Origin: Kribbibacterium absianum | Lineage (GTDB): Bacteria > Actinomycetota > Coriobacteriia > Coriobacteriales > Atopobiaceae | DNA: 64,000 nt | Direction: 5' to 3' | NCBI RefSeq assembly: GCF_030067705.1 | Contig: NZ_JASJEX010000001.1 | Coordinates: 496,001-560,000 of the forward strand | Part shown: in pieces, positions 21,850-58,127 of the stretch | How the letters are laid out: each line of letters starts with the position of its first letter | Position numbering within the stretch: position 1 is the stretch's first letter | Translations under genes and position numbers: made by a program | The notes under the pieces: generated by a model | Databases searched by the model: none | What the model was told of the DNA's origin: nothing | The model's input: the letters and a program-made list of their open reading frames with translations, nothing else

Positions 21850-22395
21850 ATGGCGTCCATCTACGATTTCACTGTCGAGAAGCCCGACGGCACGGAGGTC
21901 TCGCTCTCCGAGTTCCAGGGCAAGCCGATGCTCATCGTCAACACTGCCACTGGCTGTGGCTTCACCCCGCAGTACGAGGATCTCAAGAACCTGTACAACA
22001 CCTACTCCGGACAGGGCCTCGAGATCATCGACATCCCGTGCGACCAGTTCGGGCACCAGGCGCCCGGCACCGACGAGGAGATCCACACCTTCTGCACCGC
22101 GAACTTCGGCACCCCCTACGAGCAGTACAAGAAGTCCGAGGTGAACGGCGACGGGCAGCTGCCGCTCTACGCCTTCTTGAAGGAGCAGCAGGGCTTCGAG
22201 GGTTTCACGGGGGAGAAGGCCGACTTCATGGACGGCTACCTCAAGGAGAACGTGGACCCGAACTACGCGGACAACGACGACATCAAGTGGAACTTCACCA
22301 AGTTCCTCGTCTCCAAGGACGGCGACGTGGTGGCGCGCTTCGAGCCCACCGTTGACATGGCCGTCGTGGAAGAGGCCGTGAAGGAGCAACTGTAA
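21850..22395 (+). CDS. gpx: Glutathione-peroxidase-family thiol peroxidase
   Basis: This is 181 residues, one thioredoxin-fold domain. [12 protein letters not shown] places a peroxidatic cysteine (not selenocysteine) at 36; [13 protein letters not shown] and [10 protein letters not shown] complete the catalytic set. It reduces hydroperoxides, probably with thioredoxin rather than glutathione as the reductant (inference from family knowledge). Start ATG 21850 follows GGAAAGGAG. A family A element and a terminator follow. Confidence 0.92.
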
Positions 22396-22404
22396 CGCCC
22401 CGGG

Positions 22405-22435
22405 TGGGACACTTCAAAAAGACGAGAGCGTCTCA
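22405..22435 (+). repeat. 31-nt family A palindromic element, copy 1
   Basis: TGGGAC at one end, GTCTCA at the other, core CAAAAAGACGAGA. Lies between the gpx stop and its terminator. Confidence 0.85.
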
Positions 22436-22448
22436 CTGCGCGGTTGAC

Positions 22449-22478
22449 GAGGGTCGCCTTGAGGGGCGGCCCTCTTTT
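22449..22478 (+). terminator. Rho-independent terminator after gpx
   Basis: GAGGGTCGCC (22449-22458) pairs with GGCGGCCCTC (22465-22474), followed by TTTT. Confidence 0.85.
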
Positions 22479-22499
22479 CATGGGGACAAACCCCTGTTC

Positions 22500-22528
22500 T
22501 TGACCGGGATTACCGGCTCTCCTATCGT
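22500..22528 (+). promoter_or_regulatory. Promoter of the first dnaJ gene
   Basis: TTGACC (22500-22505) and TATCGT (22523-22528) with a 17-base spacer. The inverted repeat GGGGacaaaCCCC lies just upstream. No CIRCE or HAIR heat-shock operator was recognised. Confidence 0.75.
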
Positions 22529-22571
22529 ATTTGGGTTACTGAGAGCACCCGGCGACAGGAGCCCCACCCGC

Positions 22572-23687
22572 ATGTCTTCGATGACCGAGAAGGACTACTA
22601 CGCCATCTTGGGCGTCCCCGAGAACGCGAGCACCGACGAGATCCGCAAGGCGTTCCAGCAAAAGGCACGCAAGCTGCACCCGGACGTCAACAAGGCGCCC
22701 GACGCCGAGGAGAGGTTCAAGGAGGTCTCCGAGGCCTACGCCGTCCTATCGGACGAGGACAAGCGGCGCCGCTACGACGCGATGCGCTCTGGCAACGTGT
22801 TCGCGCAGAGCTCCCCAACGGGGCCGGCCGGCGGCTATGGCTACGGCGGGTACGGCTCGCCGTTCGGCGGACCGGTGGGCTGGGGCGGGTTCTCGACCCA
22901 ACGGCGAACGCGGGCAGCAGCGTTCAACCCCCGGGCGGGCCAGGACGTCGTGTACCAGCTGGACCTTGATCCCAAGACCGCTGCGGCCGGTTGCCGCCGG
23001 GGCGTCACCTATCAACGCTACGTGAGCTGCGACGCCTGCCACGGCACCGGCTCCACCGAGGTGGACCACGCCAAAGCCTGCCCGACCTGTCACGGCACCG
23101 GCACCATCGATGTGGACCTGTCGCAGGTCTTCGGCGGCCTGGGCTTCGGCGCGATGCGCATGCAGTGCCCCGAGTGCGAGGGCACCGGCAAGGTGGTCGC
23201 CGACCCCTGCGACCGCTGTCACGGGTCCGGGCGCGTGCTGTCCGGGTCGGAGGCGGTCGTGGACATCCCCGCCAACTCCCACGACGGCACCGAGGTGCGC
23301 ATCAAGGGCATGGGCAACGCGGGCACCAACGGCGCGCCGGCGGGCGACCTCGTCGTGCGCGTGGGCGTGCCAGCGGAACGTTTGAGCCCGGAGAGCGCGA
23401 TGGGCTTCCAGGTGATCGGCTTCATCATCCCGTTCGTGTTCTTCGGCTGGTTCTTCAACGTGCTCGACGTGCTCGTGCCGCTCATGGCCATCCCGGTGGT
23501 CCTCGGCGCGGTGTTCATCGTCCGGGGCGGCCTCGGTAAGCACAACAGGGTCTGGTGGAAGAACGCCGGGCGCTACGTGGTCAACGGGCTCTCCAACGGC
23601 TTTTTGCTGGCCCTGTTCCTCGGCCTGCTGTTCAGCTGCGCGCAGAGCGCCGGCCGGACCGCGATGTACTACGGACCCGGCTGGTAG
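22572..23687 (+). CDS. DnaJ-family co-chaperone with C-terminal membrane helices
   Basis: This is 371 residues. The J-domain has HPD at 36-38, followed by a Gly-rich stretch (~85-110) and four zinc-finger repeats ([32 protein letters not shown]; ~152-222). Substrate-binding domain I is partial. The dimerisation region is replaced by three hydrophobic helices (~276-295, 300-317, 342-356). That is not normal DnaJ and suggests a membrane-anchored J-protein. ATG 22572 has an AGGAG site. It precedes a full-length dnaJ, so this is a paralogue with a special role rather than the main DnaJ. Confidence 0.85.
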
Positions 23688-23715
23688 CGGGGAGGGTGCC
23701 GGCGGGCCGGCAGGG

Positions 23716-23739
23716 CGCCCCGGAGAAACCCACGGGGCG
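23716..23739 (+). terminator. Possible terminator hairpin after the first dnaJ
   Basis: CGCCCC (23716-23721) pairs with GGGGCG (23734-23739) around an 12-nt loop, with a weak downstream ACTTGTTT. Confidence 0.4.
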
Positions 23740-23781
23740 AACTTGTTTCTGACGTGAACGTTTCGGAGCGGGCCAGAAACT

Positions 23782-23802
23782 AACGGATGGGCAGCATCCG
23801 TT
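23782..23802. promoter_or_regulatory. Perfect inverted repeat ahead of the second dnaJ, possible operator
   Basis: AACGGATG (23782-23789) and CATCCGTT (23795-23802) are perfect 8-bp arms five bases apart, just before a -10-like CATAGT at about 23808. A dimeric repressor site is plausible. Confidence 0.5.
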
Positions 23803-23873
23803 GGGGCATAGTGTCTCGCGACAAACTGCAGAGCGCGACGGGGGAGACGCCCCGCTGGAATGGAGGCTCGTCC

Positions 23874-25136
23874 ATGGCGGAGGCCAAACGCGACTACTAC
23901 GAGGTGCTCGGCGTCGATCGGGACGCGGACGCGAAGACCATCAAGCGGGCGTTCCTCAAGAAGGCGCGGGTGATGCACCCGGACGTCTCGGACGACCCGG
24001 ACGCCGAGGCCCAGTTCAAAGAGATCAACGAGGCGTACACGGTCCTCTCCGACGACGCCAAGCGTGCCAACTACGACCGCTACGGCGACCCCAACGGGCC
24101 GGGCGGCTTCGGCGGGGCCGGCATGGACGACTTCTTCGGCGGCTTCGATATGAGCGACCTGTTCTCCGAGTTCTTCGGCGGAGGGCGGGGTGCGTCGCGA
24201 CCGCGCACGCGCGGCCGCGACATGACCATCTCGATGCGCATCAGCCTCCAAGAAGCGGCAACGGGCGTCGAGCGCACCATCACCTACGACCGCCTTGCAC
24301 CCTGCGAGGACTGCGGCGGCACCGGCTCGGCGGACGGCTCCGAACCCGAGACGTGCCCTGACTGCGGGGGGTCCGGCGTTGTCACCAGCTGGCAGCACAC
24401 GATCCTTGGCCGCATGCAGACGCAGACCGCCTGCCCCACCTGTCACGGCACCGGCCAGGTGGTAGGGACACCGTGCGAGACCTGTGACGGGCAGGGGCGC
24501 GCACCGTCCCGCGAGAAGGTCACGGTGCAGATCCCCGCCGGCGTGCGCAGTGGCCAGTCGCTCGTGATCCAGGGGGCCGGGGAGGCCGGCGTGCGCGGCG
24601 AGGCCGCAGGAGACCTCGTCGTGACCGTCGAGGTGGAGCAGAGCGACCAGTTCGTGCGGCAAGGGGACGACCTGGCGTGCGCCATCGACGTGGACGCGTT
24701 CGAGGCGATGCTCGGCGCCGCCGTCGACGTGCCGGGCGTGATGCCCGACGAGACGGTGACGGTCGAGGTGCCGGCGGGGACGCAGCCGCAGGCTCAGATC
24801 GTCGTCCCGGGCAAGGGCATGCCGAGGCTCGGAAGCCCGGACCGCCGCGGCCGCCTGGTCTGCGTCGTGAACCTCGTGGTGCCGCGTGACCTCAGCGACG
24901 AGCAGCAGGCGGCGCTGACGGCGCTCGCCCGGGAGCGCGGGTGCCGCGTGGCCGGGTCCGACGAGACGCTCGAGGGCAGGATCGACGAGGTGTTCTCCGA
25001 GGACAAGGGCCTGGTTGAGGAGGCCGAGGCGCCGAGCGGACAGGCGGCGACGCACGAGGCTGCGGACGACCGTCCGGCGAAGAAGCCGCGGCCGACGAAG
25101 AAGCGCCCCTTCGGCAAGCGACGGAAGAAGAAGTGA
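23874..25136 (+). CDS. dnaJ: Chaperone DnaJ (HSP40), canonical
   Basis: This is 420 residues. J-domain with HPD at 35-37, Gly/Phe region with DDFFGGFD (~80-110), zinc finger with [24 protein letters not shown] and CETCDGQG (~143-210), two beta-sandwich substrate domains, and a basic Lys-rich tail after ~395. It delivers unfolded proteins to DnaK and stimulates its ATPase. The stop overlaps the mtaB GTG. The terminal KKRPFGKRRKKK tail is unusual. dnaK and grpE are not in the window. Confidence 0.95.
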   Translation: MAEAKRDYYEVLGVDRDADAKTIKRAFLKKARVMHPDVSDDPDAEAQFKEINEAYTVLSDDAKRANYDRYGDPNGPGGFGGAGMDDFFGGFDMSDLFSEFFGGGRGASRPRTRGRDMTISMRISLQEAATGVERTITYDRLAPCEDCGGTGSADGSEPETCPDCGGSGVVTSWQHTILGRMQTQTACPTCHGTGQVVGTPCETCDGQGRAPSREKVTVQIPAGVRSGQSLVIQGAGEAGVRGEAAGDLVVTVEVEQSDQFVRQGDDLACAIDVDAFEAMLGAAVDVPGVMPDETVTVEVPAGTQPQAQIVVPGKGMPRLGSPDRRGRLVCVVNLVVPRDLSDEQQAALTALARERGCRVAGSDETLEGRIDEVFSEDKGLVEEAEAPSGQAATHEAADDRPAKKPRPTKKRPFGKRRKKK

Positions 25137-26416
25137 GCGCTCCTGCGGGGGGTCCCGCCGCGGGGGCGGGGGCGTCGGCCGGTCGCGCTCCCCGCGTGGC
25201 GCTCGTGAACCTGGGCTGCCGCGTGAACCGGGTCGAACTCGACGCCATCGCCGCTTCCCTGCAGAAGGCCGGCTGCGAGCTGGTTCCGGAGCCGGACGCC
25301 GAGGCGGTGGTGGTCAACACGTGCGCCGTCACGGGCGAGGCCGAGGCCAAGGCGCGCAAGGCCGTGCGTCGGGCGGCCGCATTGCCGCAGGCGCCGGTGG
25401 TGGTGGCCACCGGGTGCGTGGCGAACCTGTTCGTCGACGAGTTGGCCGAGCTCGGCGATCGCGTCGTTGTGGAGCCGATCAAGGGGCTCGTGCCGGCACG
25501 CGTGCTGGGCGAGCTGGGCTGGTCCGAAGGGTCGGGCACGGCGACGGCCGGGGGCACGCCGACGGGCCGCACGCGCCCGGGCGTCAAGATCCAGGACGGT
25601 TGTGACAACCGGTGCACCTACTGCATCGTGTGGAAGGCCCGCGGGGCCGCACGGTCGCTGCCGCGAAACGAGGCGCTCGCGCAGGTGCTGGCCGAGGTCG
25701 ACGCCGGCGCCCACGAGGTGGTGCTCACCGGGATCAACCTGGGGCGTTACTCGGACGGCGGCTTTGGGCTCGCGGAGCTGCTCGACGAGCTTCTCGAGCG
25801 CACGGACGGCGTGCGCTACCGCCTCAGTTCCATCGAGCCTCCCGAGGTCACACCGGCGCTGCTCAGCGTGATGGGGCAGAGCGGCGGCATGGCGGCACCG
25901 TTTTTGCACCTGCCGGTCCAGAGCGGCTCTGCCGGCGTGCTCAAGCGCATGGGGCGCCTGTACACGCCTGCGGAGTACCTCCGCGTCGTCGATGCGGCGC
26001 GGGAGGCGGTGCCGGGAATCGCGGTGGCCTGCGACATCATCGCCGGCTTCCCGGGCGAGACGGACGAGGAGCACGTCGAGTCGGTGGCCCTCTGCCGGCG
26101 CGCCGCGTTCGCGAACATGCACGTGTTCCGCTACTCACGGCGCCCGGGGACACCTGCGGCGGCCTCGCCGGACCAGGTGGACCCGCGCGTGATCGCCGCG
26201 CGCGCCTCCGAGCTACGCGGCCTCGCACGGGACATGCGCCGGACGTACGTGGCAGCGCGCGTGGGCCAGCCGGAGCTGGTCCTCGTGGAGGGCGGCGGGA
26301 AGGGCGTCACCGGCGGCCTCGTGGAGTGCCTGGTGCCGGACGGCATCCGAGAAGGGTCGCTCGTCTCGGTCACGCCGCACGCGGCCCTTCCCGGCTCCCT
26401 CCTCGACGCCCGGTGA
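25133..26416 (+). CDS. mtaB: tRNA ms2t6A37 methylthiotransferase MtaB
   Basis: This is 427 residues. The UPF0004 domain has cysteines 29 (LGCRVN), 64 (NTCAVT) and 95 (TGCVAN); the radical SAM cluster is CDNRCTYC at 157-164. The LGCRVN form and short length favour MtaB over MiaB or RimO. It adds a methylthio group to t6A37 in tRNA. The TRAM region at the C-terminus is short. GTG 25133 overlaps dnaJ. Its TGA stop is the first three bases of a family A element. Confidence 0.88.
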   Translation: MSAPAGGPAAGAGASAGRAPRVALVNLGCRVNRVELDAIAASLQKAGCELVPEPDAEAVVVNTCAVTGEAEAKARKAVRRAAALPQAPVVVATGCVANLFVDELAELGDRVVVEPIKGLVPARVLGELGWSEGSGTATAGGTPTGRTRPGVKIQDGCDNRCTYCIVWKARGAARSLPRNEALAQVLAEVDAGAHEVVLTGINLGRYSDGGFGLAELLDELLERTDGVRYRLSSIEPPEVTPALLSVMGQSGGMAAPFLHLPVQSGSAGVLKRMGRLYTPAEYLRVVDAAREAVPGIAVACDIIAGFPGETDEEHVESVALCRRAAFANMHVFRYSRRPGTPAAASPDQVDPRVIAARASELRGLARDMRRTYVAARVGQPELVLVEGGGKGVTGGLVECLVPDGIREGSLVSVTPHAALPGSLLDAR

Positions 26417-26444
26417 GACACTCTAAAGAGACGAAAGTGTCTCA
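26414..26444 (+). repeat. 31-nt family A element, copy 2
   Basis: TGAGAC...GTCTCA with core TAAAGAGACGAAA. The first three bases are the mtaB stop codon. Paired in tandem with the next copy, 10 bases apart. Confidence 0.9.
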
Positions 26445-26454
26445 TCCCGTTCGG

Positions 26455-26485
26455 TGGGACAGGCCAAAGAGACGAGATCGTCCCA
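26455..26485 (+). repeat. 31-nt family A element, copy 3
   Basis: TGGGAC...GTCCCA with core CAAAGAGACGAGATC. Tandem partner of copy 2; both ends carry the compensated G/C version of the outer pair. Confidence 0.9.
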
Positions 26486-26539
26486 CCGCGCTGGGCTAGG
26501 ATGAACAGCGAAACCTGTCGTCCCGGTGAGGAGGCCTCA

Positions 26540-28460: not shown

Positions 28461-28494
28461 CCGGGCCTGTCCGACGGCCGCCGAACAGGCCCGG
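28461..28494. terminator. Hairpin between convergent dgkA and SPFH genes
   Basis: CCGGGCCTGT (28461-28470) and ACAGGCCCGG (28485-28494) form a 10-bp stem. It sits exactly between two oppositely oriented family A elements. It lacks its own T run, but together they could stop both strands. Confidence 0.65.
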
Positions 28495-28525
28495 TGAGAC
28501 GATCTCGTCTCTTTGATCTGTCTCA
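28495..28525 (-). repeat. 31-nt family A element, copy 5
   Basis: Inverted copy with the exact consensus. Its first three bases (minus strand) are the TGA stop of the SPFH gene. Confidence 0.9.
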
Positions 28526-29446
28526 CTCGCTGGGCTGGTCCGCCTTGTGGGCGCACAGCATCTGCTCGAACATCGACGTGCTCTCGCGGAAATCGGCCGG
28601 AAGGACCACGGTGGACGACTTCCCGCTCTTGGAGAAGCTCTCCATCATGTCGGTCCACTGGGTGTAGAGGAACAGCTCGTTGGCCTCGGCCGTCGTCACG
28701 CCGGCCTCCTTGATCGTCGCCAGCGAGTCCTTGATGCCCTCGGCGATGGCCTTGCGCTGCTCGGCGATGCCGCGACCGGCCTGGCGCATGGCGTCGGCCT
28801 TGGCCTCGGCCTCGGTGACGGTGCGGATCCGCTCGGCGTCGGCCAGCGACTGCGCCGCCACCTTCTTGCGCTCGGCAGCGTTGATGTCGTTCATGGCCGC
28901 CTCGACGTCCTTGGGCAGCCCGATGGACTGGATCAGCGTGCCGACCACTTCGAAGCCGTAGCGGATCATGTGGTCGGAGACCTTCTTGCGGACGTCATCG
29001 GCGATGGCGTCCTTCTCATCAAAGACGGAGTCCAGGTCGAACTGCGGGATCGTGGAGCGCAACGCGTCCACGATGTAGGACTGCATCTGCTCCTCGGGGT
29101 TGGTGAGGGAATAGTAGCTGCGGTAGACGCCGGAGTCCTGCACCGTGGCGCCCTGCTCCTCCGAGACCTTGTACTGCACCGCGACCTCGACCTTGATGGT
29201 CACGTTGTCGCGGGTCTTGGCGGAGAGCGTGAACACGTCCTGCTGGATGCGGAGGTCCACTATCTTCGCGATGGTCTCGATCATGGGGATCTTCACGTGG
29301 AAGCCGGGGCCCTCCATGCGCGCGAACTTGCCGAAGCGCTCGATGATCGCCACGGACTGCTGGCTCACCGTGTAGGCGCCGGTGATGATCACGACGAGGA
29401 CCACAAGGACGACCAAAACCCAGCTCAGAGTACTGATGATTGCCAT
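28523..29446 (-). CDS. SPFH/band-7 (stomatin-like) membrane protein
   Basis: This is 307 residues. One N-terminal membrane helix (~4-24), then the band-7 domain (QQSVAIIERFGKF, KIPMIETIAKIVDLRIQQ, TKDNVTIKVEVAVQY-like segment) and a helical Ala/Glu-rich region (~185-260). Stomatin-like proteins form membrane microdomain scaffolds; usually a nodulation-efficiency-D partner is adjacent, but none is seen here. ATG 29446 has GGAAGG upstream. The stop codon comes from the family A element, so the C-terminus may have been altered by it. Confidence 0.88.
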   Translation of the reverse strand: MAIISTLSWVLVVLVVLVVIITGAYTVSQQSVAIIERFGKFARMEGPGFHVKIPMIETIAKIVDLRIQQDVFTLSAKTRDNVTIKVEVAVQYKVSEEQGATVQDSGVYRSYYSLTNPEEQMQSYIVDALRSTIPQFDLDSVFDEKDAIADDVRKKVSDHMIRYGFEVVGTLIQSIGLPKDVEAAMNDINAAERKKVAAQSLADAERIRTVTEAEAKADAMRQAGRGIAEQRKAIAEGIKDSLATIKEAGVTTAEANELFLYTQWTDMMESFSKSGKSSTVVLPADFRESTSMFEQMLCAHKADQPSE

Positions 29447-29887: not shown

Positions 29888-29907
29888 CAGCGCCGACGTC
29901 CCCGATG

Positions 29908-29938
29908 TGGGACAGATCAAAGAGACGAGATCGTCTCA
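29908..29938 (+). repeat. 31-nt family A element, copy 6
   Basis: TGGGAC...GTCTCA with the consensus core. Its last three bases, read on the minus strand, are the TGA stop of the XRE gene. Confidence 0.9.
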
Positions 29939-30598
29939 TCCAGGAGAACCATCCTCAAAGGCCGTCCGGGAACCCAAGCCCGGGCGGCCTTTTCCCTCGG
30001 GACTCCCAGCTCCGTCGAAGAACGTCCAGTCACCAACCGTGAACTGTCCCAAGCGGTCGGGGCGCACCGGCTCTGCCAGCCGCCGGGTTTCCATCCACTC
30101 GTCGGTGACCTCCACCAGGAACTGTGCACCGCTCTGCTCCACCAGATAGAACTGCTTGTTCCGGTTGTCGATGGCCCGCGCGACCTCGAGGCTCCCACCC
30201 CAGAAAGACCACGGCGCAAGGACGGTCATGGCCGTGTCCAATAGGCTCTCCGCCTTGGGTAGCTTCTGCACCGAGGCCAGCGAGTGAATCTCCGCCCTCG
30301 GGAACCGCTCGGTCACGGCCTGTCGCTTCCTCTCCCAGCGATGCCTCCCGTCGTAGGCGGCGAGGTCGATTGGCGCTCGCGTCACAGACAGGTCCAGGGC
30401 GGTTCCGTCGTCCAGCAGCTCATCGAGGCTCATGTCGAGTAGCCCGGCCATCACCTTGAGGTTCTCGATGTCCGGAATGCCTTTGCCCGTCTCCCACTTG
30501 GTCACGGCCTGCCGGGACACGCCGAGCATCTGCGCCATCTGCGCCTGCGTCAGCCCCGCGTCCTTGCGTGCGGCTCGGATCTTCTCGCCCAAAGTCAT
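29936..30598 (-). CDS. XRE-family transcriptional regulator
   Basis: This is 220 residues. An N-terminal Cro/C1-type helix-turn-helix (~3-58: IRAARKDAGLTQAQMAQMLG, SRQAVTKWE, PDIENL) is followed by an unrecognised C-terminal part with a PH-like hydrophobic/aromatic pattern. It is divergent from the acetolactate decarboxylase gene, which may be its target. Its last ~25 codons run through the opposite-strand terminator of the small gene and end in a family A element, so the natural stop has probably been lost. Start ATG 30598 has GAAGGGGCGAG upstream. Confidence 0.82.
   Translation of the reverse strand: MTLGEKIRAARKDAGLTQAQMAQMLGVSRQAVTKWETGKGIPDIENLKVMAGLLDMSLDELLDDGTALDLSVTRAPIDLAAYDGRHRWERKRQAVTERFPRAEIHSLASVQKLPKAESLLDTAMTVLAPWSFWGGSLEVARAIDNRNKQFYLVEQSGAQFLVEVTDEWMETRRLAEPVRPDRLGQFTVGDWTFFDGAGSPEGKGRPGLGSRTAFEDGSPG
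29957..29993 (+). terminator. Terminator of the small gene, inside the XRE frame
   Basis: AAAGGCCGTCCGGG (29957-29970) pairs with CCCGGGCGGCCTTT, followed by a final T and C-rich sequence. On the other strand the same bases encode the XRE C-terminus. Confidence 0.75.
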
Positions 30599-39192: not shown

Positions 39193-40068
39193 GTGGCGCT
39201 GCGCGATACGCGGCCGGCGGTCGAGGTCGCCGAGCAGGCCGGTGCCTGCTTCGGCGTCGAGCGGGCGCTGGCGCTCGTGGACCGCGTGCTCGCGGAGCAT
39301 GACGGCTCGACCGGCGTTCACACGCTCGGCCCGCTGATCCACAACCCCGCCGTGGTGGACGGCCTCGCCGAGCAGGGCGTGTCCGTCGTTGGGGAGCGGG
39401 ACCTTGGGTCGCTCCCGGGAGGCGACCTGGTGGTGCTGCGCACTCACGGTGTGGTCCCGTCCGTTGTCGACGAGGCGCGCGCGGCCGGCCTCGAGGTGGC
39501 CGACGCCACGTGCCCCTACGTCAAGAAGGTTCACCACGCCGCTCGGCGGCTCGCTGACGAGGGCTACCAAGTGGTGGTCGTGGGCGAGCAGGGGCACCCC
39601 GAGGTGGAGGGGATCCTCGGCCACGCGCCCAGCGCCTGGGTGATCGGCTGCGCGGAGGACCTCGACGGCCGCGACGTGCCCAAGCGCGTGGGGGTCGTGG
39701 TGCAGACGACGCAGTCCAAGGCGAACCTCGACGCGGTCATCGCGCGGCTCAGCTCGCTGGCCGAGGAGGTGCGGCTCTTCAACACCATCTGCGAGGCAAC
39801 GTCCGAGCGTCAGGCCGCAGCGGCCGCTCTTGCCCGGCGCGCCGACGTCATGGTGGTGCTGGGAGGGCGGAACTCCGCCAACACGACGCGGCTCGCCCAG
39901 ATTTGCTCGACCTTCGCGCCCACGCACCACATCGAGGGCGCCGACGAGCTCGACCCCGCCTGGTTGGCCGGCGCGGCGCTCGTCGGTGTCACCGCCGGCG
40001 CGTCCACCCCGGCCTCGCAGATCGCCGACCTGGTGGCCGCCATCGAGTCTGTGGCAGACCCCTCATGA
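39193..40068 (+). CDS. ispH: 4-hydroxy-3-methylbut-2-enyl diphosphate reductase
   Basis: This is 291 residues from GTG 39193. The three cluster cysteines are at 19 (AGACFGV), ~107 (DATCPYV) and ~200 (NTICEAT); LRTHGV and GHPEVEG are active-site blocks. It is the last step of the MEP isoprenoid pathway, making IPP and DMAPP. One base separates it from cmk-plsC; the ATGA overlap couples it to the next gene. Confidence 0.95.
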   Translation: MALRDTRPAVEVAEQAGACFGVERALALVDRVLAEHDGSTGVHTLGPLIHNPAVVDGLAEQGVSVVGERDLGSLPGGDLVVLRTHGVVPSVVDEARAAGLEVADATCPYVKKVHHAARRLADEGYQVVVVGEQGHPEVEGILGHAPSAWVIGCAEDLDGRDVPKRVGVVVQTTQSKANLDAVIARLSSLAEEVRLFNTICEATSERQAAAAALARRADVMVVLGGRNSANTTRLAQICSTFAPTHHIEGADELDPAWLAGAALVGVTAGASTPASQIADLVAAIESVADPS

Positions 40069-41504
40069 CGGGTGAGACACTTCAAAGAGACGACTTCGTC
40101 TCATCGTCTCCTTACCTTGACCCACCGGCGCGGGCGGACTACGCGCCGAGCGCGGCGCCCGGCACGCAGGGGGCGGTCGTCCAATCGGTCGCCGAGGGAA
40201 GCCCGGCGTGGCAGGCGGGGCTCGAGCCTGGCATGGTGGTGCGCGCCGTCAACGGCGTGCCGCTCGACGACATCATCACGTGGCGCTGGGAGGCCGACGA
40301 GGGTCGCTGCACGCTGGACGTCGAGGTTCCCGGCGAAGACGGTCTCTTCGAGGCGGAGCTGTACCGCGACCCGGGCGAGGACTGGGGCCTCCAGTTCACC
40401 GACGTGCTCTTCGACGGCATCCGCACCTGCCGGAACGCCTGCGTGCTCTGCTTCATGTCGATGCTGCCCAAGGGCCTCCGCGACTCGCTCTATCTGCGCG
40501 ACGACGACTACCGCCTGAGCTTCCTTCAGGGCAACTTCGTGACGCTCACCAATGTGGACGACAAGGACCTCGCTCGGGTCATCGACTACCGCATGGAGCC
40601 GATGAACGTCTCGATCCACGCGGTGTCGCACGAGGCGCGCCGGAAGATGATGGGGAAGCACGAGGCGCGCGGCCTCGAGGTGCTCGAGGCCCTCTGCGAC
40701 GCCGGCCTCGAGGTGCACGGCCAAGTGGTGCTGTGCCCCGGCCTGAACGACGGCGACGAGCTCGTCCGCACCCTCGACTTCGTCGAGCAGCATCCCGCGA
40801 TCACATCGCTCGCCATCGTCCCGCTCGGCTACACCAAGCATTCAAGGTTCGACCGGAGCTACTCGGACGACCCCGCTGCCGCCCGCCGCGTCGTGGAGCA
40901 GCTGAAGCCGTATCAAGAGCGGAGCCGCGCGACAACCGGGTCCACGCGCTTCCAGCTCTCGGACGAGTTCTACGTGGCCGCCCAGCTGCCGGTGCCCCCG
41001 GCCGACCACTACGACGGTTTCCCGCAGTACTACGACGGCATCGGGATGCTCCGCTCGTTCCTCGACGAAACGGATCGGGTGGTGCTCGAGCGCGCACCGG
41101 AGCTCTCTGCGGTGGCCAACGCGCTCGAGGCGCGGGGCGAGCGGGTCCTCATCGTCTGCGGGCACGCGGCCCTCGGCGTCTACGAGCGGTTCTGCGCCGG
41201 CGCCCCCTTGCGGGGCGTCGCGGCACCCTTCCCGGTGCGCAACGACTACTTCGGCGGCGACGTCAACGTGACCGGCCTCATTGTGGCCGAGGATCTGCTC
41301 GCGCAGCTGCCCGAGGACCTCGCGGGCACCTTTGTCGTGCTCCCGGACCTCATGCTCAACTTCGACCGCATGACCCTCGACGGCTCCACGGAGCGCGATG
41401 TCCTCGACGCGATCGCGGCCCGCGGGGGCACGGGCGCGTTCCTCACCACGCTGCCAGGGCCCCTTGTCGACGGCCTTGCCGAACGCTTCTGCCAGAACGG
41501 GTAG
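40065..41504 (+). CDS. DUF512 protein with PDZ and radical SAM-like domains
   Basis: This is 479 residues. A PDZ domain (~36-95: VVQSVAEGSPAWQAGLEPG, VNGVPLDD) is followed by CRNACVLC (cysteines 122, 126, 129) and a radical SAM-like barrel, then the DUF512 C-terminal domain. The family is conserved next to der; its reaction is unknown. Residues 3-13 are encoded by a complete family A element. There is no in-frame ATG, GTG or TTG between that element and the PDZ domain, so the element must be translated. Confidence 0.85.
   Translation: MTGETLQRDDFVSSSPYLDPPARADYAPSAAPGTQGAVVQSVAEGSPAWQAGLEPGMVVRAVNGVPLDDIITWRWEADEGRCTLDVEVPGEDGLFEAELYRDPGEDWGLQFTDVLFDGIRTCRNACVLCFMSMLPKGLRDSLYLRDDDYRLSFLQGNFVTLTNVDDKDLARVIDYRMEPMNVSIHAVSHEARRKMMGKHEARGLEVLEALCDAGLEVHGQVVLCPGLNDGDELVRTLDFVEQHPAITSLAIVPLGYTKHSRFDRSYSDDPAAARRVVEQLKPYQERSRATTGSTRFQLSDEFYVAAQLPVPPADHYDGFPQYYDGIGMLRSFLDETDRVVLERAPELSAVANALEARGERVLIVCGHAALGVYERFCAGAPLRGVAAPFPVRNDYFGGDVNVTGLIVAEDLLAQLPEDLAGTFVVLPDLMLNFDRMTLDGSTERDVLDAIAARGGTGAFLTTLPGPLVDGLAERFCQNG
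40073..40103 (+). repeat. 31-nt family A element, copy 9, translated in the DUF512 gene
   Basis: TGAGAC...GTCTCA with core CAAAGAGACGACTTC. In frame it encodes ETLQRDDFVS. Confidence 0.9.
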
Positions 41505-53567: not shown

Positions 53568-55301
53568 ATGGAGGAATTGGCGCGGCGTTTCTTCCCGCCC
53601 TACCGGCGCTATCTGATCTGGGGTCCTGTCACCAAGTGCCTGGAGGTGGGCTTCGACCTGCTCACGCCGCTCGTCATCGCGTGGATGATCGACTCCGGGG
53701 TCAACGCGGGCGACACGGACGTGATCTGGCAGGGGGTCGGCCTCCTTGCGGGCATGGCGTTCCTCGGCTTCGGCGTCACGCTCATCTGCCAAAAGATGGC
53801 TTCGCTGGCGAGCCAGGGCGTCGGGACCGACATCCGCGCCGCCCTCATCGAGAAGATGGGCACCTTCTCGGCCGCCGAGCTCGACCGTTTCGGCGCCCCG
53901 ACGCTCGTGACGCGCACCACCAACGACGTCAACCAGCTGCAGCTCGCCATCTCGATGCTCATCCGCCAGCTGATCCGCTGGCCAGCTCTGGCCGTGGGCT
54001 CGGTGGTGTGCGCGCTCGCCATCGACGTGCCGCTCGGCCTCGTGTTCTGCGTGTGCCTGCCGGTGCTCGCGGCGGTGTTCTACCTCGTGATGTCCCGCTC
54101 CGTGCCGTTCTTCGCGGGCATGCAGGCCAAGCTCGACGCGATCGGGCGCCTCGTCCGTGAGACGGCGAGCGGCGTGCGCCCCATCCGCGCGTTCAACCGC
54201 GAGGCGTTCCAGGAGGCGCGGTTCCGCGAGGCGTCGCAGGAACAGGCCGACATGGCCGTGGGTGCGGGCCGCTTGACCGCGCTGCTCTCTCCGGCGACCT
54301 TCCTCGTCATGAACGTGGGCATCGCCTGCGTCCTCTGGCTCGGCGGGGGGTCCGTGACGGCCGGGCGCCTTGAGCAGGGCCAGGTCATGGCGCTCATCGG
54401 CTACATGAACCAGCTGCTCGTGTCCATTGCGTACATCGCCAACCTCGTCGTGATCTTCACGCGCGCCGCAGCGAGCGCCGAGCGTGTGGAGGAGGTCCTG
54501 GCCTGCGAACCCACCGTGACCGACGCGGGCGTCTGCGAGCAGCCGACCGAGACCGGCGCGCCGGTGCTCGAGATGGAGCGCGTGTCGTTCTCGTTCCCGA
54601 ACGCGGGGCGGCCGGCCTTGATGGACGTGTCGCTCGTGCTGGAACCGGGCCAGAGCCTCGGCGTGATCGGCGGCACGGGCTCCGGCAAGAGCGCATTGGC
54701 CTCGCTCGTGCCGCGCCTGTACGACGCGACGGAGGGCAGCGTGCGCGTGGCCGGCCGCGACGTGCGCGACCTGCCGCTGTCCCAGCTTCGGAGACTCGTG
54801 GCCTTTGTGCCCCAGCGGGCGGAGCTGGTGAGCGGCACGGTGCGCGACAACCTCCGCTGGCGCGGCGAGGACGCGACCGACGACGAGCTGTGGGCGGCGC
54901 TCGAGGCCGCCCAGGCAGCCGACTTTGTTCGCCGGCTGCCGGAGGGTCTCGACGCGCCCGTCGAGCCCAACGGCCGCAACTTCTCGGGCGGCCAGCGGCA
55001 GCGGCTCACCGTGGCGCGCGCGCTCGTGGAGCCGTCTGCCCTCGTGGTGCTCGACGACTCGGCGTCGGCCCTCGATTACGCCACGGACGCTGCGCTCCGG
55101 CGGGCGCTCGCGCACCTGCCCGGGTCGCCGGCGCGCCTCGTGATCAGCCAGCGCATCAGTACCGTGAGCTCCTGCGACCAGGTGCTCGTGCTCGACCAGG
55201 GACAGGTCATGGGTCTCGGCACGCACGACGAGCTCCTCGCGGGCTGCCCGCTCTACCGTGAGATCGCGGACTCGCAGCTCCGCCAAGAGGAGGCCGCATG
55301 A
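53568..55301 (+). CDS. ABC exporter half-transporter, subunit A (degenerate ATPase site)
   Basis: This is 577 residues. Six membrane helices (~15-310) and one nucleotide-binding domain (GGTGSGKSALA at ~367; FSGGQRQRL). In Walker B the catalytic Glu is Asp (VVLDDSAS, Asp 497). That is the known hallmark of one half of heterodimeric exporters such as TM287/288. Its ATPase site should be weak. Four-base overlap with subunit B. The substrate is unknown; multidrug or lipid-type export is the family norm. Confidence 0.9.
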   Translation: MEELARRFFPPYRRYLIWGPVTKCLEVGFDLLTPLVIAWMIDSGVNAGDTDVIWQGVGLLAGMAFLGFGVTLICQKMASLASQGVGTDIRAALIEKMGTFSAAELDRFGAPTLVTRTTNDVNQLQLAISMLIRQLIRWPALAVGSVVCALAIDVPLGLVFCVCLPVLAAVFYLVMSRSVPFFAGMQAKLDAIGRLVRETASGVRPIRAFNREAFQEARFREASQEQADMAVGAGRLTALLSPATFLVMNVGIACVLWLGGGSVTAGRLEQGQVMALIGYMNQLLVSIAYIANLVVIFTRAAASAERVEEVLACEPTVTDAGVCEQPTETGAPVLEMERVSFSFPNAGRPALMDVSLVLEPGQSLGVIGGTGSGKSALASLVPRLYDATEGSVRVAGRDVRDLPLSQLRRLVAFVPQRAELVSGTVRDNLRWRGEDATDDELWAALEAAQAADFVRRLPEGLDAPVEPNGRNFSGGQRQRLTVARALVEPSALVVLDDSASALDYATDAALRRALAHLPGSPARLVISQRISTVSSCDQVLVLDQGQVMGLGTHDELLAGCPLYREIADSQLRQEEAA

Positions 55302-57121
55302 CCCCCCGTGAGACAGATCAAAGAGACGAGATCGTCCCACGGGGCCCCCGCACGGGCGCCATCGTTCGTAGGCTCCTTCGGTACGCGCGCCCGCACGCCG
55401 GGCTCGTGACGCTCACCGCCCTCTGCGCGCTCGCCGGCGTGGGCCTCTCGCTCTGGGTGCCCGTGCTTATCGGCGACGCCGTGGACGCCCTGGTCGGCGC
55501 CGGCGACGTGGACTGGGAGTTCCTCGCCTGGTCGGTGCGCACCATCGCGCTCGTGGCGCTCGGCGTCGCGGCGTTCCAGTGGGCGCAGGGCTACGCGAGC
55601 AACCGGCTCTCCTACGAGACGGTCCGCGACCTCCGCAACGCCGCCTACGACAAGCTGCACCGCCTGCCCGTCTCCTACCTCGACACGCACGGTGCCGGCG
55701 ACCTCATCAGCCGCATCGTGAACGACGCGGACGCCGTGGGCGACGGGATCCTCCAAGGCGTCCAGCAACTGCTCACGGGCATCGTGACCATCGTCGGCAC
55801 GCTGCTCTTCATGCTCACGGTGTCGCCGGAGATGACCGTTGTGGTCGTCCTGCTCACGCCCATCTCGATGCTCGGGGCCTGGGCCATCGCGCACTTCTCG
55901 CAGAAGACGTTCGCCGCGCAGCAACAGATCCAGGGGCGCCTCTCGGCCTATACCGAGGAGCATGTCGGCGTCCAGCGGCTGCTCAACCTTTACGGGCGCC
56001 AGGTGGAAGAGCGCGACGGCTTCGGCGCCATCAACGGCGAGCTGTACCAGGTGGGGGAGCGCGCACAGTTCATCGGCTCGCTCACGAACCCCGGGACGAG
56101 GTTCGTGAACAACCTCGTGTACGCGGGCGTCGCGGCCGCCGGCTGCTGTTGCGTGGTCACCGGCATTCCTGGGACGCTCACCGTGGGCGGCGTCCAGAGC
56201 TTCCTCTCCTATGCGACGCAGTACACGAAGCCGTTCAATGAGATCTCCGGCGTCCTCGCGCAGGTGCAGACCGCGCTGGCCGGGGCGGAGCGGCTCTTTG
56301 GGCTCATCGACGCGCCCGAGCAGGAGCCGGACGCCCCGGACGCAAGGGCACTACCGGAACAGGCTCGCGGCGAGGTCGCGTTCCGGGGCGTGACCTTTGG
56401 CTACGACCCCAAGAAGCCCGTGCTCCACAATGTCAGCTGGCACGCGAGCCCCGGCGAGCGCATCGCCGTGGTGGGGCCCACCGGCTGCGGCAAGACGACG
56501 CTCATCAACCTGTTGCTGCGGTTCTACGACGTGGACGAGGGAGCCGTGCTCGTGGACGGGGCGGACGTGCGGAGCCTCAAGCGGGCGAGCCTGCGGGGCG
56601 CTTTCGGCATGGTGCTGCAGGACACGTGGCTCTTCGAGGGGACCGTGCGCGAGAACATCGCCTACGGGTGCCCTGCCGCCACGGACGAGCAGGTGCAGGA
56701 GGCGGCGCGGAGGGCGTTCGCCGACGGGTTCATCGAGCAGTTGCCGAACGGCTACGACACCGTGATCGGCGGGGCGTCCACGCAGCTGTCGCAGGGCCAG
56801 TGCCAGCTCCTGTGCATCGCGCGGGTGATGCTCCGCGACCCGTCCGTCCTTGTGCTGGACGAGGCGACGAGCTCCATCGACACGCGCACCGAGGTGCTCG
56901 TGCAGGCAGCGTTCGATGCGATGGTGGCCGGGCGCACGTCCATCATCGTGGCGCACCGCCTCTCCACGATCCGGCACGCGACCCGCATCCTCGCGATGAA
57001 GGACGGCCACATCGTGGAGCAGGGCACGCACGAGGAGCTCCTCGCCGCAGGCGGTCTCTACGCGCAACTCTACCGCGCTCAGTGGGCGCAGGAAGAGGCC
57101 GAATCCTCCGCCACGGAGTGA
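55298..57121 (+). CDS. ABC exporter half-transporter, subunit B (catalytic)
   Basis: This is 607 residues, six membrane helices and an ATPase domain (GPTGCGKTTLI at ~391; LVLDEATSS with catalytic Glu 522). The signature is LSQGQ rather than LSGGQ, matching the degenerate composite site of a heterodimer. Residues 4-14 are encoded by a family A element directly after the start; the next in-frame start codon lies inside the first membrane helix, so the element is very likely translated. The stop codon is the first three bases of another family A element, so both ends of this gene are made of the same repeat. Confidence 0.9.
   Translation: MTPRETDQRDEIVPRGPRTGAIVRRLLRYARPHAGLVTLTALCALAGVGLSLWVPVLIGDAVDALVGAGDVDWEFLAWSVRTIALVALGVAAFQWAQGYASNRLSYETVRDLRNAAYDKLHRLPVSYLDTHGAGDLISRIVNDADAVGDGILQGVQQLLTGIVTIVGTLLFMLTVSPEMTVVVVLLTPISMLGAWAIAHFSQKTFAAQQQIQGRLSAYTEEHVGVQRLLNLYGRQVEERDGFGAINGELYQVGERAQFIGSLTNPGTRFVNNLVYAGVAAAGCCCVVTGIPGTLTVGGVQSFLSYATQYTKPFNEISGVLAQVQTALAGAERLFGLIDAPEQEPDAPDARALPEQARGEVAFRGVTFGYDPKKPVLHNVSWHASPGERIAVVGPTGCGKTTLINLLLRFYDVDEGAVLVDGADVRSLKRASLRGAFGMVLQDTWLFEGTVRENIAYGCPAATDEQVQEAARRAFADGFIEQLPNGYDTVIGGASTQLSQGQCQLLCIARVMLRDPSVLVLDEATSSIDTRTEVLVQAAFDAMVAGRTSIIVAHRLSTIRHATRILAMKDGHIVEQGTHEELLAAGGLYAQLYRAQWAQEEAESSATE
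55309..55339 (+). repeat. 31-nt family A element, copy 10, translated in exporter subunit B
   Basis: TGAGAC...GTCCCA, consensus core. In frame it encodes ETDQRDEIVP, the same reading frame as in the DUF512 gene. Confidence 0.9.
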
Positions 57122-57149
57122 GACAGATCAAAGAGACGGGATCGTCCCA
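57119..57149 (+). repeat. 31-nt family A element, copy 11
   Basis: TGAGAC...GTCCCA. Starts with the stop codon of exporter subunit B. First of the tandem pair upstream of the RAYT gene. Confidence 0.92.
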
Positions 57150-57160
57150 CGCGACCGGGG

Positions 57161-57191
57161 TGAGACAGATCAAAGAGACAAGACTGTCTCA
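57161..57191 (+). repeat. 31-nt family A element, copy 12
   Basis: TGAGAC...GTCTCA with inner GAGACA/TGTCTC. Eleven bases after copy 11. Followed by a small CCCGG/CCGGG hairpin. Confidence 0.92.
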
Positions 57192-57297
57192 CCCGGCAAC
57201 CGGGTGTCCCTTGTTTATGGAGGTCCCATCAAGGCCTGAAACACGCCTGTAATCTAGGTTCCCACAGACCGCTTCCCGAGGAGACGGAGGAACCCAG

Positions 57298-58050
57298 ATG
57301 GCAGACACCCACCGCGCGCGTTCGGATGCCGACCTGTACCACGTCGTGGCGCGAGGAGTCGGGAGGCAGCTCATCTTCGAGGACGACGCGGACCGCGCCG
57401 CCTACACCGACCTCCTCTATGGGCAGGCGCGCAAGCGGGGCGCGGAGATCGTCGCCCATGCCCTCGTCGAGAACCACACCGACGCCGTCGTCCAGGTGCC
57501 CTACGAACGGCTCGGGGCTTTCATGAAGGTGGTCCTCGGTGCCTATGCACGCTCGTTCAACCGGCGCCACGAGCGAACGGGGCACCTTTTGGAAGGGCCG
57601 TTTCACAGCGAGCCCATCAACGATGACACGTACCTCCTCACCGTGGTGCGCTATGTGCACCAGAACCCCCTCAAAGCAGGGCTCGCGGGCGGCCTTCTGT
57701 ATCCGTGGAGCAGCTACGGGCGCTATCTGGCCGGCGACGGGTCGCCGCTGGTGATGGGGCTCCTCGGGTCCACCGATGCTTTCGTTCGATTCCATGAGGC
57801 GCCGGGGACCCTGTGCGACGGGGTGCGCCCGCCTTTGCCACGGGGAACGGCCAGAAACGCCGAGGCGCTGATCGACGCCGCGAGAGAGGCGCTCGGCGCC
57901 GACCCATCCACGGTGAAAGGGGTGCCGCGCGAGCAGCGTGACGCGTCGCTGCGCCTGTTGGTCGAGACGGGATTCTCGGTGCGCCAAGTGGAGCTCGTGA
58001 CCGGAGTCTCGCACGCGACCGTGCAACGCGTGACAAGCAGGGCCGCATGA
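57298..58050 (+). CDS. REP-associated tyrosine transposase (RAYT), IS200/Y1-like
   Basis: This is 250 residues. Y1-transposase fold: start with DLYHVVARGVGRQL, the motif region VENHTDAVVQVP and VRYVHQNPLKAGL with the likely catalytic Tyr 119, followed by YPWSSYGRYL. A C-terminal helix-turn-helix (~222-247, FSVRQVELVTGVSHATV) is typical of several RAYT groups. The metal-binding HUH motif reads His60-Thr-Asp62, not HUH. RAYTs are single-copy host-vertical transposases that mobilise REP palindromes. Two tandem family A elements lie upstream and two inverted ones downstream, and the stop codon is the start of the third. ATG 57298 has GGAGACGGAGG. Confidence 0.88.
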   Translation: MADTHRARSDADLYHVVARGVGRQLIFEDDADRAAYTDLLYGQARKRGAEIVAHALVENHTDAVVQVPYERLGAFMKVVLGAYARSFNRRHERTGHLLEGPFHSEPINDDTYLLTVVRYVHQNPLKAGLAGGLLYPWSSYGRYLAGDGSPLVMGLLGSTDAFVRFHEAPGTLCDGVRPPLPRGTARNAEALIDAAREALGADPSTVKGVPREQRDASLRLLVETGFSVRQVELVTGVSHATVQRVTSRAA

Positions 58051-58078
58051 GACGATCTCGTCTCTTTGATCTGTCCCA
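58048..58078 (-). repeat. 31-nt family A element, copy 13
   Basis: Inverted copy; its first three bases on the plus strand (TGA) are the RAYT stop codon. Consensus core. Confidence 0.92.
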
Positions 58079-58090
58079 CCCCGACGGGCA

Positions 58091-58121
58091 TGAGACAGTC
58101 CTGTCTCTTTGATCTGTCTCA
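58091..58121 (-). repeat. 31-nt family A element, copy 14
   Basis: Inverted copy 12 bases after copy 13. On its own strand the inner hairpin is GAGACAG/CTGTCTC, the compensated version also seen at 28422. Confidence 0.92.
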
Positions 58122-58127
58122 CAAAGA

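What the first reader, a model, noticed from the sequence alone, without database searches (positions are those of the whole stretch)
22572..23687. Membrane-anchored DnaJ paralogue with zinc finger
J-domain and all four zinc repeats are kept but the C-terminal substrate/dimerisation part is replaced by three hydrophobic helices. It has its own good promoter and stands next to the canonical dnaJ. It could bring DnaK to the membrane.
Basis: partly seen in the sequence, partly recalled or inferred. Interest (0 to 1): 0.5.

Follow-up and report, generated by a model that had tools for sequence, protein, structure and literature searches.

The report
Membrane-anchored cousin of chaperone DnaJ
Next to the normal DnaJ gene these bacteria carry a second DnaJ whose tail has been swapped for three predicted membrane-spanning helices, probably so that it can call the DnaK protein-folding machine to the cell membrane; the design is old and shared by many related bacteria, and I found no description of it.

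Summary
Window 22572-23687 (+) encodes a 371-aa protein with a J domain (HPD), a G/F linker, and the first beta domain (CTDI) with all four zinc CxxCxGxG repeats. It then goes straight into three hydrophobic helices instead of CTDII and the dimerisation tail. It is no sequencing error. The same tail occurs in 157 of 297 genomes of the order: 91 of the window's own family (Atopobiaceae), 65 of a second family, 1 of a third. In a tree of 60 proteins all 26 tailed ones form one clade. In 80 of 80 named loci dnaJ lies downstream on the same strand. AlphaFold gives three helices at mostly high confidence, and positive charges put the J domain in the cytosol. The tail matched no known family or solved fold. 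The genome's only Hsp70 is DnaK. Best reading: a membrane-tethered, class A-derived J protein that captures clients at the inner face of the membrane and hands them to DnaK. The anatomy is computed; partner, location and clients are inferred. The 'own good promoter' is not kept by relatives. New variant of a known kind.

The parts
22572..23687 (+). gene of the membrane-anchored DnaJ paralogue (called mDnaJ here), 371 aa
22593..22787 (+). J domain, residues 8-72, HPD at residues 36-38
   Evidence: PF00226 E 1e-25; PDB relatives; HPD in 57 of 57 aligned rows, but the 56 relatives had been picked by containing HPD
22788..22925 (+). G/F-rich linker, residues 73-118, disordered in the model
   Evidence: sequence; block pLDDT 37-66
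22926..23375 (+). CTDI beta domain with inserted zinc finger (residues 119-268; zinc finger 153-220)
   Evidence: PF01556 positions 2-75 and PF00684; Foldseek and VIA-align to DnaJ, DnaJA2 and Ydj1
23388..23453 (+). membrane helix 1 (residues 273-294), conserved G278, G283, P287
23463..23525 (+). membrane helix 2 (residues 298-318)
23547..23669 (+). long helix 3 (residues 326-366): WW (328-329), then the hydrophobic part ending in SC (355-356)
   Evidence: WW 57/57, C356 54/57
22557..22561 (+). Shine-Dalgarno-like AGGAG, 10 nt before the ATG
   Evidence: sequence
22500..22528 (+). sigma70-like promoter match TTGACC-17-TATCGT; not conserved in relatives
22449..22474 (+). terminator-like hairpin between the upstream glutathione-peroxidase gene and this gene (2 such sites found in the scanned stretch, 1.6 expected)
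23874..25136 (+). neighbouring full-length class A DnaJ (DnaJ2)
   Evidence: PF01556 2-152 of 152

Best explanation
This is a J-domain protein derived from class A DnaJ, in which CTDII and the dimerisation tail have been replaced by a three-helix membrane anchor. The N-terminal J domain, G/F linker, CTDI and zinc finger sit in the cytosol against the membrane. CTDI and the zinc finger pick up unfolded or unassembled segments, most likely cytosolic parts of membrane proteins or precursors waiting for export. The J domain then triggers ATP hydrolysis by DnaK, so that DnaK traps the client at the membrane. Shown by computation: domain make-up, conservation, single origin, three predicted helices, charge-based N-in topology, one Hsp70 in the genome. 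Inferred: actual membrane location, DnaK as partner, CTDI client binding, client class.
For: Domain content. HPD and zinc Cys kept in relatives (the relatives were picked by containing HPD). Tail in 157 of 297 genomes of the order, 91 of them of the own family. One clade of 26 tailed proteins against 34 untailed, SH-aLRT 100. Helices at block pLDDT 87-98 in the full model except the last ten residues (72), and 74-95 in a tail-only model. K+R per segment 2.9 / 0.1 / 3.9 / 1.3 in the 62 of 79 tails that show three segments, i.e. N-terminus in by the positive-inside rule. CTDI fold match. One Hsp70 in the genome: DnaK, 864.6 bits; the second hit over Pfam's Hsp70 cut-off, 38.7 bits, is MreB (PF06723, 464.5 bits). 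That J proteins target Hsp70 to places, and that class A client sites lie in the beta domains and zinc finger, is from PMC8215388 (passages seen).
Against: No expression, localisation or interaction data. A simple hydropathy count finds only two segments in 14 of 79 tails and four in 3 of 79. In all 57 aligned rows the helix II position that is Lys26 in E. coli DnaJ (numbering and role in DnaK binding recalled) is Gln (Q29); the neighbour DnaJ has Leu there and the J protein of the dnaK operon has Arg, so this J domain may work weakly or selectively on DnaK. Without CTDII it should be monomeric unless the anchor oligomerises, and monomeric class A proteins are expected to be poorer chaperones (recalled).
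Confidence: 0.65

Rival explanations
1. A dedicated assembly factor: the membrane tail binds one particular membrane complex (for example the Sec/YidC machinery, FtsH or a transporter), and the J domain brings DnaK to that complex alone, much as DjlB/DjlC are thought to serve a membrane client set with HscC.
For: The tail keeps specific residues rather than mere hydrophobicity: G278, G283, W328, W329 are 57/57, P287 56/57, C356 54/57, which suggests a binding surface. Membrane J proteins with narrow tasks are known (DjlB/DjlC with HscC, PMC8215388 passages).
Against: CTDI and zinc finger, the general client-binding parts, are conserved (0.77 mean consensus frequency). No constant partner gene was seen: downstream is dnaJ in 80 of 80 loci; of the 61 loci where hemW is visible upstream, 19 have it within 250 nt and 41 have over 400 nt between, 32 of these 41 sharing a deaminase-like gene that the window lacks there. 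Partners elsewhere in the genome were not sought.
Confidence: 0.25
2. A DnaK-independent holding or thiol-oxidising zinc chaperone at the membrane, comparable to the plant and algal zinc DnaJ-like proteins (BSD2, ORANGE, ZnJ6).
For: All zinc Cys kept; algal ZnJ6 is a thylakoid zinc DnaJ-like protein with holding and oxidising activity (PMC7865324, abstract and section list seen); a further conserved Cys (54/57) lies towards the end of helix 3.
Against: BSD2 and ORANGE lack a J domain (recalled), whereas the J domain is the best-kept region here (0.88). The helix 3 Cys is missing in L080, L097 and L105.
Confidence: 0.12
3. A membrane-stress sensor of the heat-shock circuit: the gene arose at the head of the hrcA-dnaJ operon and its tail monitors membrane state and titrates DnaK or the repressor.
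For: In two loci of the family without mDnaJ (f2) the order is hemW, CIRCE-like site, hrcA, dnaJ (L171, L172); six mDnaJ loci keep mDnaJ-hrcA-dnaJ (L019, L028, L084, L095, L099, L174). hrcA is found in only 7 of the 91 same-family genomes and none of the 65 of the second family (taken as the same draw: same size and handles).
Against: mDnaJ persists where hrcA is gone, so HrcA cannot be its general partner. No CIRCE or HspR-type site was found near it. The hrcA loss is confounded by shared descent.
Confidence: 0.08
4. A decaying duplicate of dnaJ with a meaningless hydrophobic tail, or a frameshift artefact.
For: One relative (Atopobium minutum, L066) has a frameshift in the gene.
Against: Same tail in 157 genomes, conserved tail residues, one clade, no CTDII in other frames.
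Confidence: 0.02

Closest known systems
Class A J-domain proteins (bacterial DnaJ, DNAJA, Ydj1)
   Same: J domain, G/F linker, CTDI with inserted two-site zinc finger
   Different: No CTDII, no dimerisation domain; three membrane helices instead. Some eukaryotic class A proteins reach membranes by a C-terminal farnesyl lipid (recalled), a functional parallel by another means.
E. coli DjlB / DjlC (tail-anchored class C J proteins, partner HscC)
   Same: C-terminal membrane anchor with a J domain (PMC8215388 passages)
   Different: Those share only the J domain with DnaJ and work with HscC; here zinc finger and CTDI are kept and DnaK is the only Hsp70 found.
E. coli DjlA
   Same: J protein that functionally interacts with DnaK (passages); membrane location recalled
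   Different: Anchor at the N-terminus, J domain at the C-terminus, no zinc finger (recalled); the NCBIfam DjlA model matches only the J region, weakly (E 0.03).
Cyanobacterial DnaK3/DnaJ3
   Same: Hsp70 system working at a membrane (PMC7281324, start of abstract in the search listing)
   Different: A separate Hsp70, DnaK3, bound to thylakoids; I know of no three-helix tail there (recalled, not tested).
ZnJ6 and related plastid zinc DnaJ-like proteins
   Same: Membrane-associated protein with four CxxCxGxG motifs (PMC7865324 abstract)
   Different: Plastid proteins, DnaJ-like by their zinc motifs; the protein here has a full J domain.

Membership tests
Class A J-domain protein (DnaJ) | N-terminal J domain with HPD | tested here: met
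   PF00226 E 1e-25, over cut-off; HPD in sequence
Class A J-domain protein (DnaJ) | G/F-rich linker | tested here: met
   residues 73-118, Gly/Phe-rich by eye and disordered in the model
Class A J-domain protein (DnaJ) | zinc finger of four CxxCxGxG inserted in CTDI | tested here: met
   PF00684 54.1 bits against 32.7; all 8 Cys
Class A J-domain protein (DnaJ) | second beta domain CTDII | tested here: not met
   PF01556 stops at 75 of 152; no CTDII in any frame
Class A J-domain protein (DnaJ) | C-terminal dimerisation domain and tail | tested here: not met
   replaced by helices 273-366
Class A J-domain protein (DnaJ) | NCBIfam DnaJ equivalog score (TIGR02349) | tested here: not met
   241.7 bits against 377.2. 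The neighbour DnaJ scores 372.5, also just under, so the cut-off alone is not decisive.
Class A J-domain protein (DnaJ) | stimulates DnaK ATPase | not testable with these tools
   needs biochemistry
DjlB/DjlC-type tail-anchored J protein | C-terminal membrane anchor, J domain in cytosol | tested here: inconclusive
   predicted by hydropathy, charge and model only; three helices, not one
DjlB/DjlC-type tail-anchored J protein | HscC partner | tested here: not met
   two places match Pfam Hsp70 in the genome (99.78% complete): DnaK and MreB

The most novel reading that the evidence does not exclude
A clade-wide, fixed membrane Hsp70 station: an ancestor of two or three families of Coriobacteriales turned a dnaJ copy into an integral membrane chaperone whose three-helix tail is itself a client- or stress-sensing module. 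With it in place, the HrcA circuit in the same operon became dispensable and was lost in most lineages.
Probability: 0.1. Interest if true: 0.65.

Novelty: new variant of a known kind. Interest (0 to 1): 0.42.

Why it matters
Class A DnaJ is among the most conserved chaperones. A fixed, vertically inherited version that trades half of its client-binding part and its dimerisation domain for a multi-pass membrane anchor would be a clear bacterial case of placing Hsp70 at the membrane while keeping general client binding. It gives bacteria such as Olsenella and Atopobium an extra J protein that can be deleted or tagged, and a natural test of what CTDII and dimerisation are for. NCBIfam's DnaJ models match it only in part and below their cut-offs, so automatic annotation may well list it as an ordinary DnaJ (inference).

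Tried and rejected
Frameshift or sequence error: rejected. Own promoter as a conserved feature: rejected (4 of 76 relatives against 3.3 expected). Heat-shock operator control: no CIRCE within 4 mismatches anywhere in the window, and no CIRCE (4) or HAIR (3) near the gene in the window or in the hrcA-bearing relatives L019, L028, L084, L095, L099, L174 (both consensus sequences recalled); three HAIR-like hits at 3 mismatches in L165, L169 and L174 lie far from the gene. A genome-wide HAIR search gave 6 places at 2 mismatches against 3 for the reversed pattern, none in the window. Inverted-repeat search upstream gave nothing shared. Homology of the tail to a known family: a Pfam scan of 23 tails gave none for the window's tail and scattered weak hits for others (best E 0.0024, DUF3159, one member); PHROGs none; PDB sequence profile only VAMP2 at E 0.03 and 0.054; tail-only model in Foldseek best E 8, VIA-align best Z 3.5 among 5 chains. 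These absences do not prove a new fold. The upstream glutathione peroxidase (PF00255) as partner: of the 80 named loci only L027 shows it, some being cut short upstream, so rejected. A deaminase-like gene (L042: PF00383) precedes mDnaJ in 32 of the 41 named loci with a wide hemW gap (family tested for L042 only); not in the window, so not pursued. A second Hsp70 as dedicated partner: none, the second match is MreB. Literature: nine searches, plus passages of PMC12799103, which has no occurrence of 'membrane' in its main text, brought up no bacterial class A J protein with a multi-helix tail. The survey of bacterial J proteins where one would look (Barriot et al. 2020, cited in PMC8215388) was not held under the DOI that I recalled, so 'undescribed' is not proven.

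Limits: the named loci are the best 80 of 163, picked by patterns from the family itself. Two of the 80 (L066 frameshift; L092, no full open frame with HPD) were dropped from the 78 read in full, which had to contain HPD. Alignment A4 used 56 of these 78 plus the window, A5 63 of 78 plus the window; near-copies were left out by eye. Family names f2, f3 and f10 are not given by the tools; f2 is probably Eggerthellaceae and f10 probably Coriobacteriaceae, both recalled guesses. In one search, 120 of the non-matching genomes are not listed, so I cannot say how many f10 genomes lack the tail. An earlier count said 22 of 24 same-family genomes; the right count is 21 of 24 (G007, G008, G017 lacked a match to the single sequence; G007 and G017 match the profile, G008 is not among the genomes shown there).

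Full report
What is there. The open frame at 22572-23687 (+) encodes 371 residues. It starts at ATG 22572 with AGGAG 10 nt upstream; of 77 relatives with a usable start 55 begin MASMN and most others with a close variant. It holds a J domain, a G/F linker and a zinc finger of four CxxCxGxG repeats inserted in CTDI. Then, right after CTDI, a tail of about 100 mostly hydrophobic residues follows. Pfam's DnaJ_C model matches only its first half (2-75 of 152), while the neighbour at 23874-25136 matches it in full. The correction is that the first client-binding domain, CTDI, is kept: model residues 123-268 align to DnaJA2 with Z 12.5 over 142 residues (rmsd 3.5).

Not an artefact. No frame of 22400-23870 encodes anything like CTDII (best E 1.1). 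With one sequence as query, the tail is found in 23 of 40 genomes, own genome included. With a 23-row profile it is found in 157 of 297 genomes drawn from the order: 91 of the window's own family f1, 65 of family f10 and 1 of f3 (family counts made by hand from the listing). Of the 140 non-matching genomes 20 are listed, in order of kinship, and they begin with other families, so no same-family genome seems to lack it. A class-wide draw gave 109 of 246 and a phylum-wide draw 23 of 396, only in f1 and f10. f1 is Atopobiaceae: the tail from G022 is identical to that of Olsenella sp. KGMB02461 (L005 and L027), and named loci are Olsenella, Atopobium, Thermophilibacter, Parafannyhessea and the like. 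Two f3 genomes have a diverged version beside dnaJ; only one of them, G034, reached the profile threshold.

One origin and fixed address. In a quick maximum-likelihood tree of the J-to-CTDI part (60 rows, 271 columns, tail left out) all 26 tailed proteins form one side of a branch with SH-aLRT 100. The f3 pair joins at the base with a long branch, so its place is less sure. In 80 of 80 named loci a dnaJ match follows on the same strand (in L070 only after 3.4 kb, in L078 only its first 66 codons). The same holds in the ten loci fetched from f10 and f3 and in two further f1 loci. Two loci of f2, where no tail was found, read lepA-dusB-hemW-hrcA-dnaJ-mtaB with a CIRCE-like site (2-3 mismatches) before hrcA. 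In six loci of Atopobiaceae/f1 hrcA still lies between the tailed gene and dnaJ (L019, L028, L084, L095, L099, L174). The own genome has no hrcA. In the order draw 7 of the 91 f1 genomes and none of the 65 f10 genomes have it (taken as the same draw). So the tailed gene most simply arose at the head of the hrcA-dnaJ unit and hrcA was later lost in most lineages. Upstream the neighbour varies: hemW directly, a deaminase-like gene, or, here, a glutathione peroxidase.

The tail. The full model (57 rows, mean pLDDT 85.3, pTM 0.60) and a tail-only model (64 rows, mean pLDDT 85.4, pTM 0.68) both show three helices, the third long (41 residues). A plain hydropathy count gives three segments in 62 of 79 tails, two in 14 and four in 3. 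Among the 62, Lys+Arg average 2.9 before helix 1, 0.1 between 1 and 2, 3.9 between 2 and 3, and 1.3 after 3. That puts the J domain and the WW-bearing loop inside by the positive-inside rule (established knowledge). Conserved points are G278, G283, W328, W329 (57/57), P287 (56/57) and C356 (54/57), i.e. more than hydrophobicity. Three members (L080, L097, L105) have another ending without that Cys. No family or fold for the tail was found, which does not show that it is new.

How it probably works. The genome has three J proteins: this one, the full DnaJ beside it, and a zinc-less one in an operon that reads dnaK-grpE-J-hspR (L002, named from sequence by eye). The only Hsp70 found is DnaK (864.6 bits); a second hit over the Pfam cut-off is MreB. 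With an intact HPD, kept CTDI and zinc finger, and a membrane anchor, the likeliest role is to trap clients at the cytosolic face of the membrane for DnaK. This is inference. Against easy acceptance stands the invariant Gln at the helix II position that is Lys26 in E. coli DnaJ (57/57; its role is recalled), which may tune or weaken the contact.

Regulation. The promoter-like match at 22500-22528 is real as a match (1 against 0.1 expected) and follows a terminator-like hairpin (2 found, 1.6 expected), so transcription from its own start is plausible in this genome. Relatives do not keep it (4 of 76 against 3.3 expected). No heat-shock operator was recognised near it.

Known or new. It is class A-derived but fails two defining features of class A, CTDII and the dimerisation domain. 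It may work like, but is not a member of, the tail-anchored DjlB/DjlC type (passages of PMC8215388). Literature searches turned up no description, but the main survey of bacterial J proteins could not be read. I rate it a new variant of a known kind, of moderate interest.

Noticed in passing
window 22390-22438, 26399-26488, 28488-28526, 29893-29941, 40058-40106, 55294-55342, 57104-57194, 58041-58122: Interspersed palindromic repeat, REP-like, core about 27-30 nt (GAGACAGATCAAAGAGACGAGATCGTC...), 8 + 3 copies in the window, some in pairs; those between 22390 and 29941 lie between or at the ends of genes. 24 matches within 3 mismatches in the genome against 0 for the reversed pattern. One copy lies just upstream of the finding.
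   Followed up: partly
own genome and order-wide; L171, L172, L174: Heat-shock repressor HrcA is absent here and in most of the family (found in 7 of 91 f1 and 0 of 65 f10 genomes), although in two f2 loci it sits beside dnaJ with a CIRCE-like site.
   Followed up: partly
L002 (G000:C3): The dnaK operon reads dnaK-grpE-J-hspR (by eye) with a zinc-less, class B-like J protein, so the full zinc DnaJ is not in the dnaK operon.
   Followed up: partly
L066 5644-5656: In Atopobium minutum DSM 20586 the tailed gene is split by a frameshift in the G/F linker; could be a sequencing error.
   Followed up: no
L080, L097, L105: Variant tail without the terminal Cys and with a longer last hydrophobic stretch and a basic end.
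   Followed up: no
L078 6502-6699: In Olsenella phocaeensis the dnaJ beside the tailed gene matches only over residues 4-69 before mtaB follows; it may be truncated, leaving the tailed protein as the only zinc DnaJ of this locus.
   Followed up: partly
window 21850-22395: A glutathione peroxidase gene (PF00255, E 5.4e-34) lies directly upstream; among the 80 named loci only L027 shows it there, so it looks like a local insertion.
   Followed up: partly
L042 4691-5179 and similar places in 32 of 41 named loci with a wide hemW gap: A cytidine/deoxycytidylate deaminase-like gene (PF00383 in L042) sits between hemW and the tailed dnaJ in many relatives, not in the window.
   Followed up: partly
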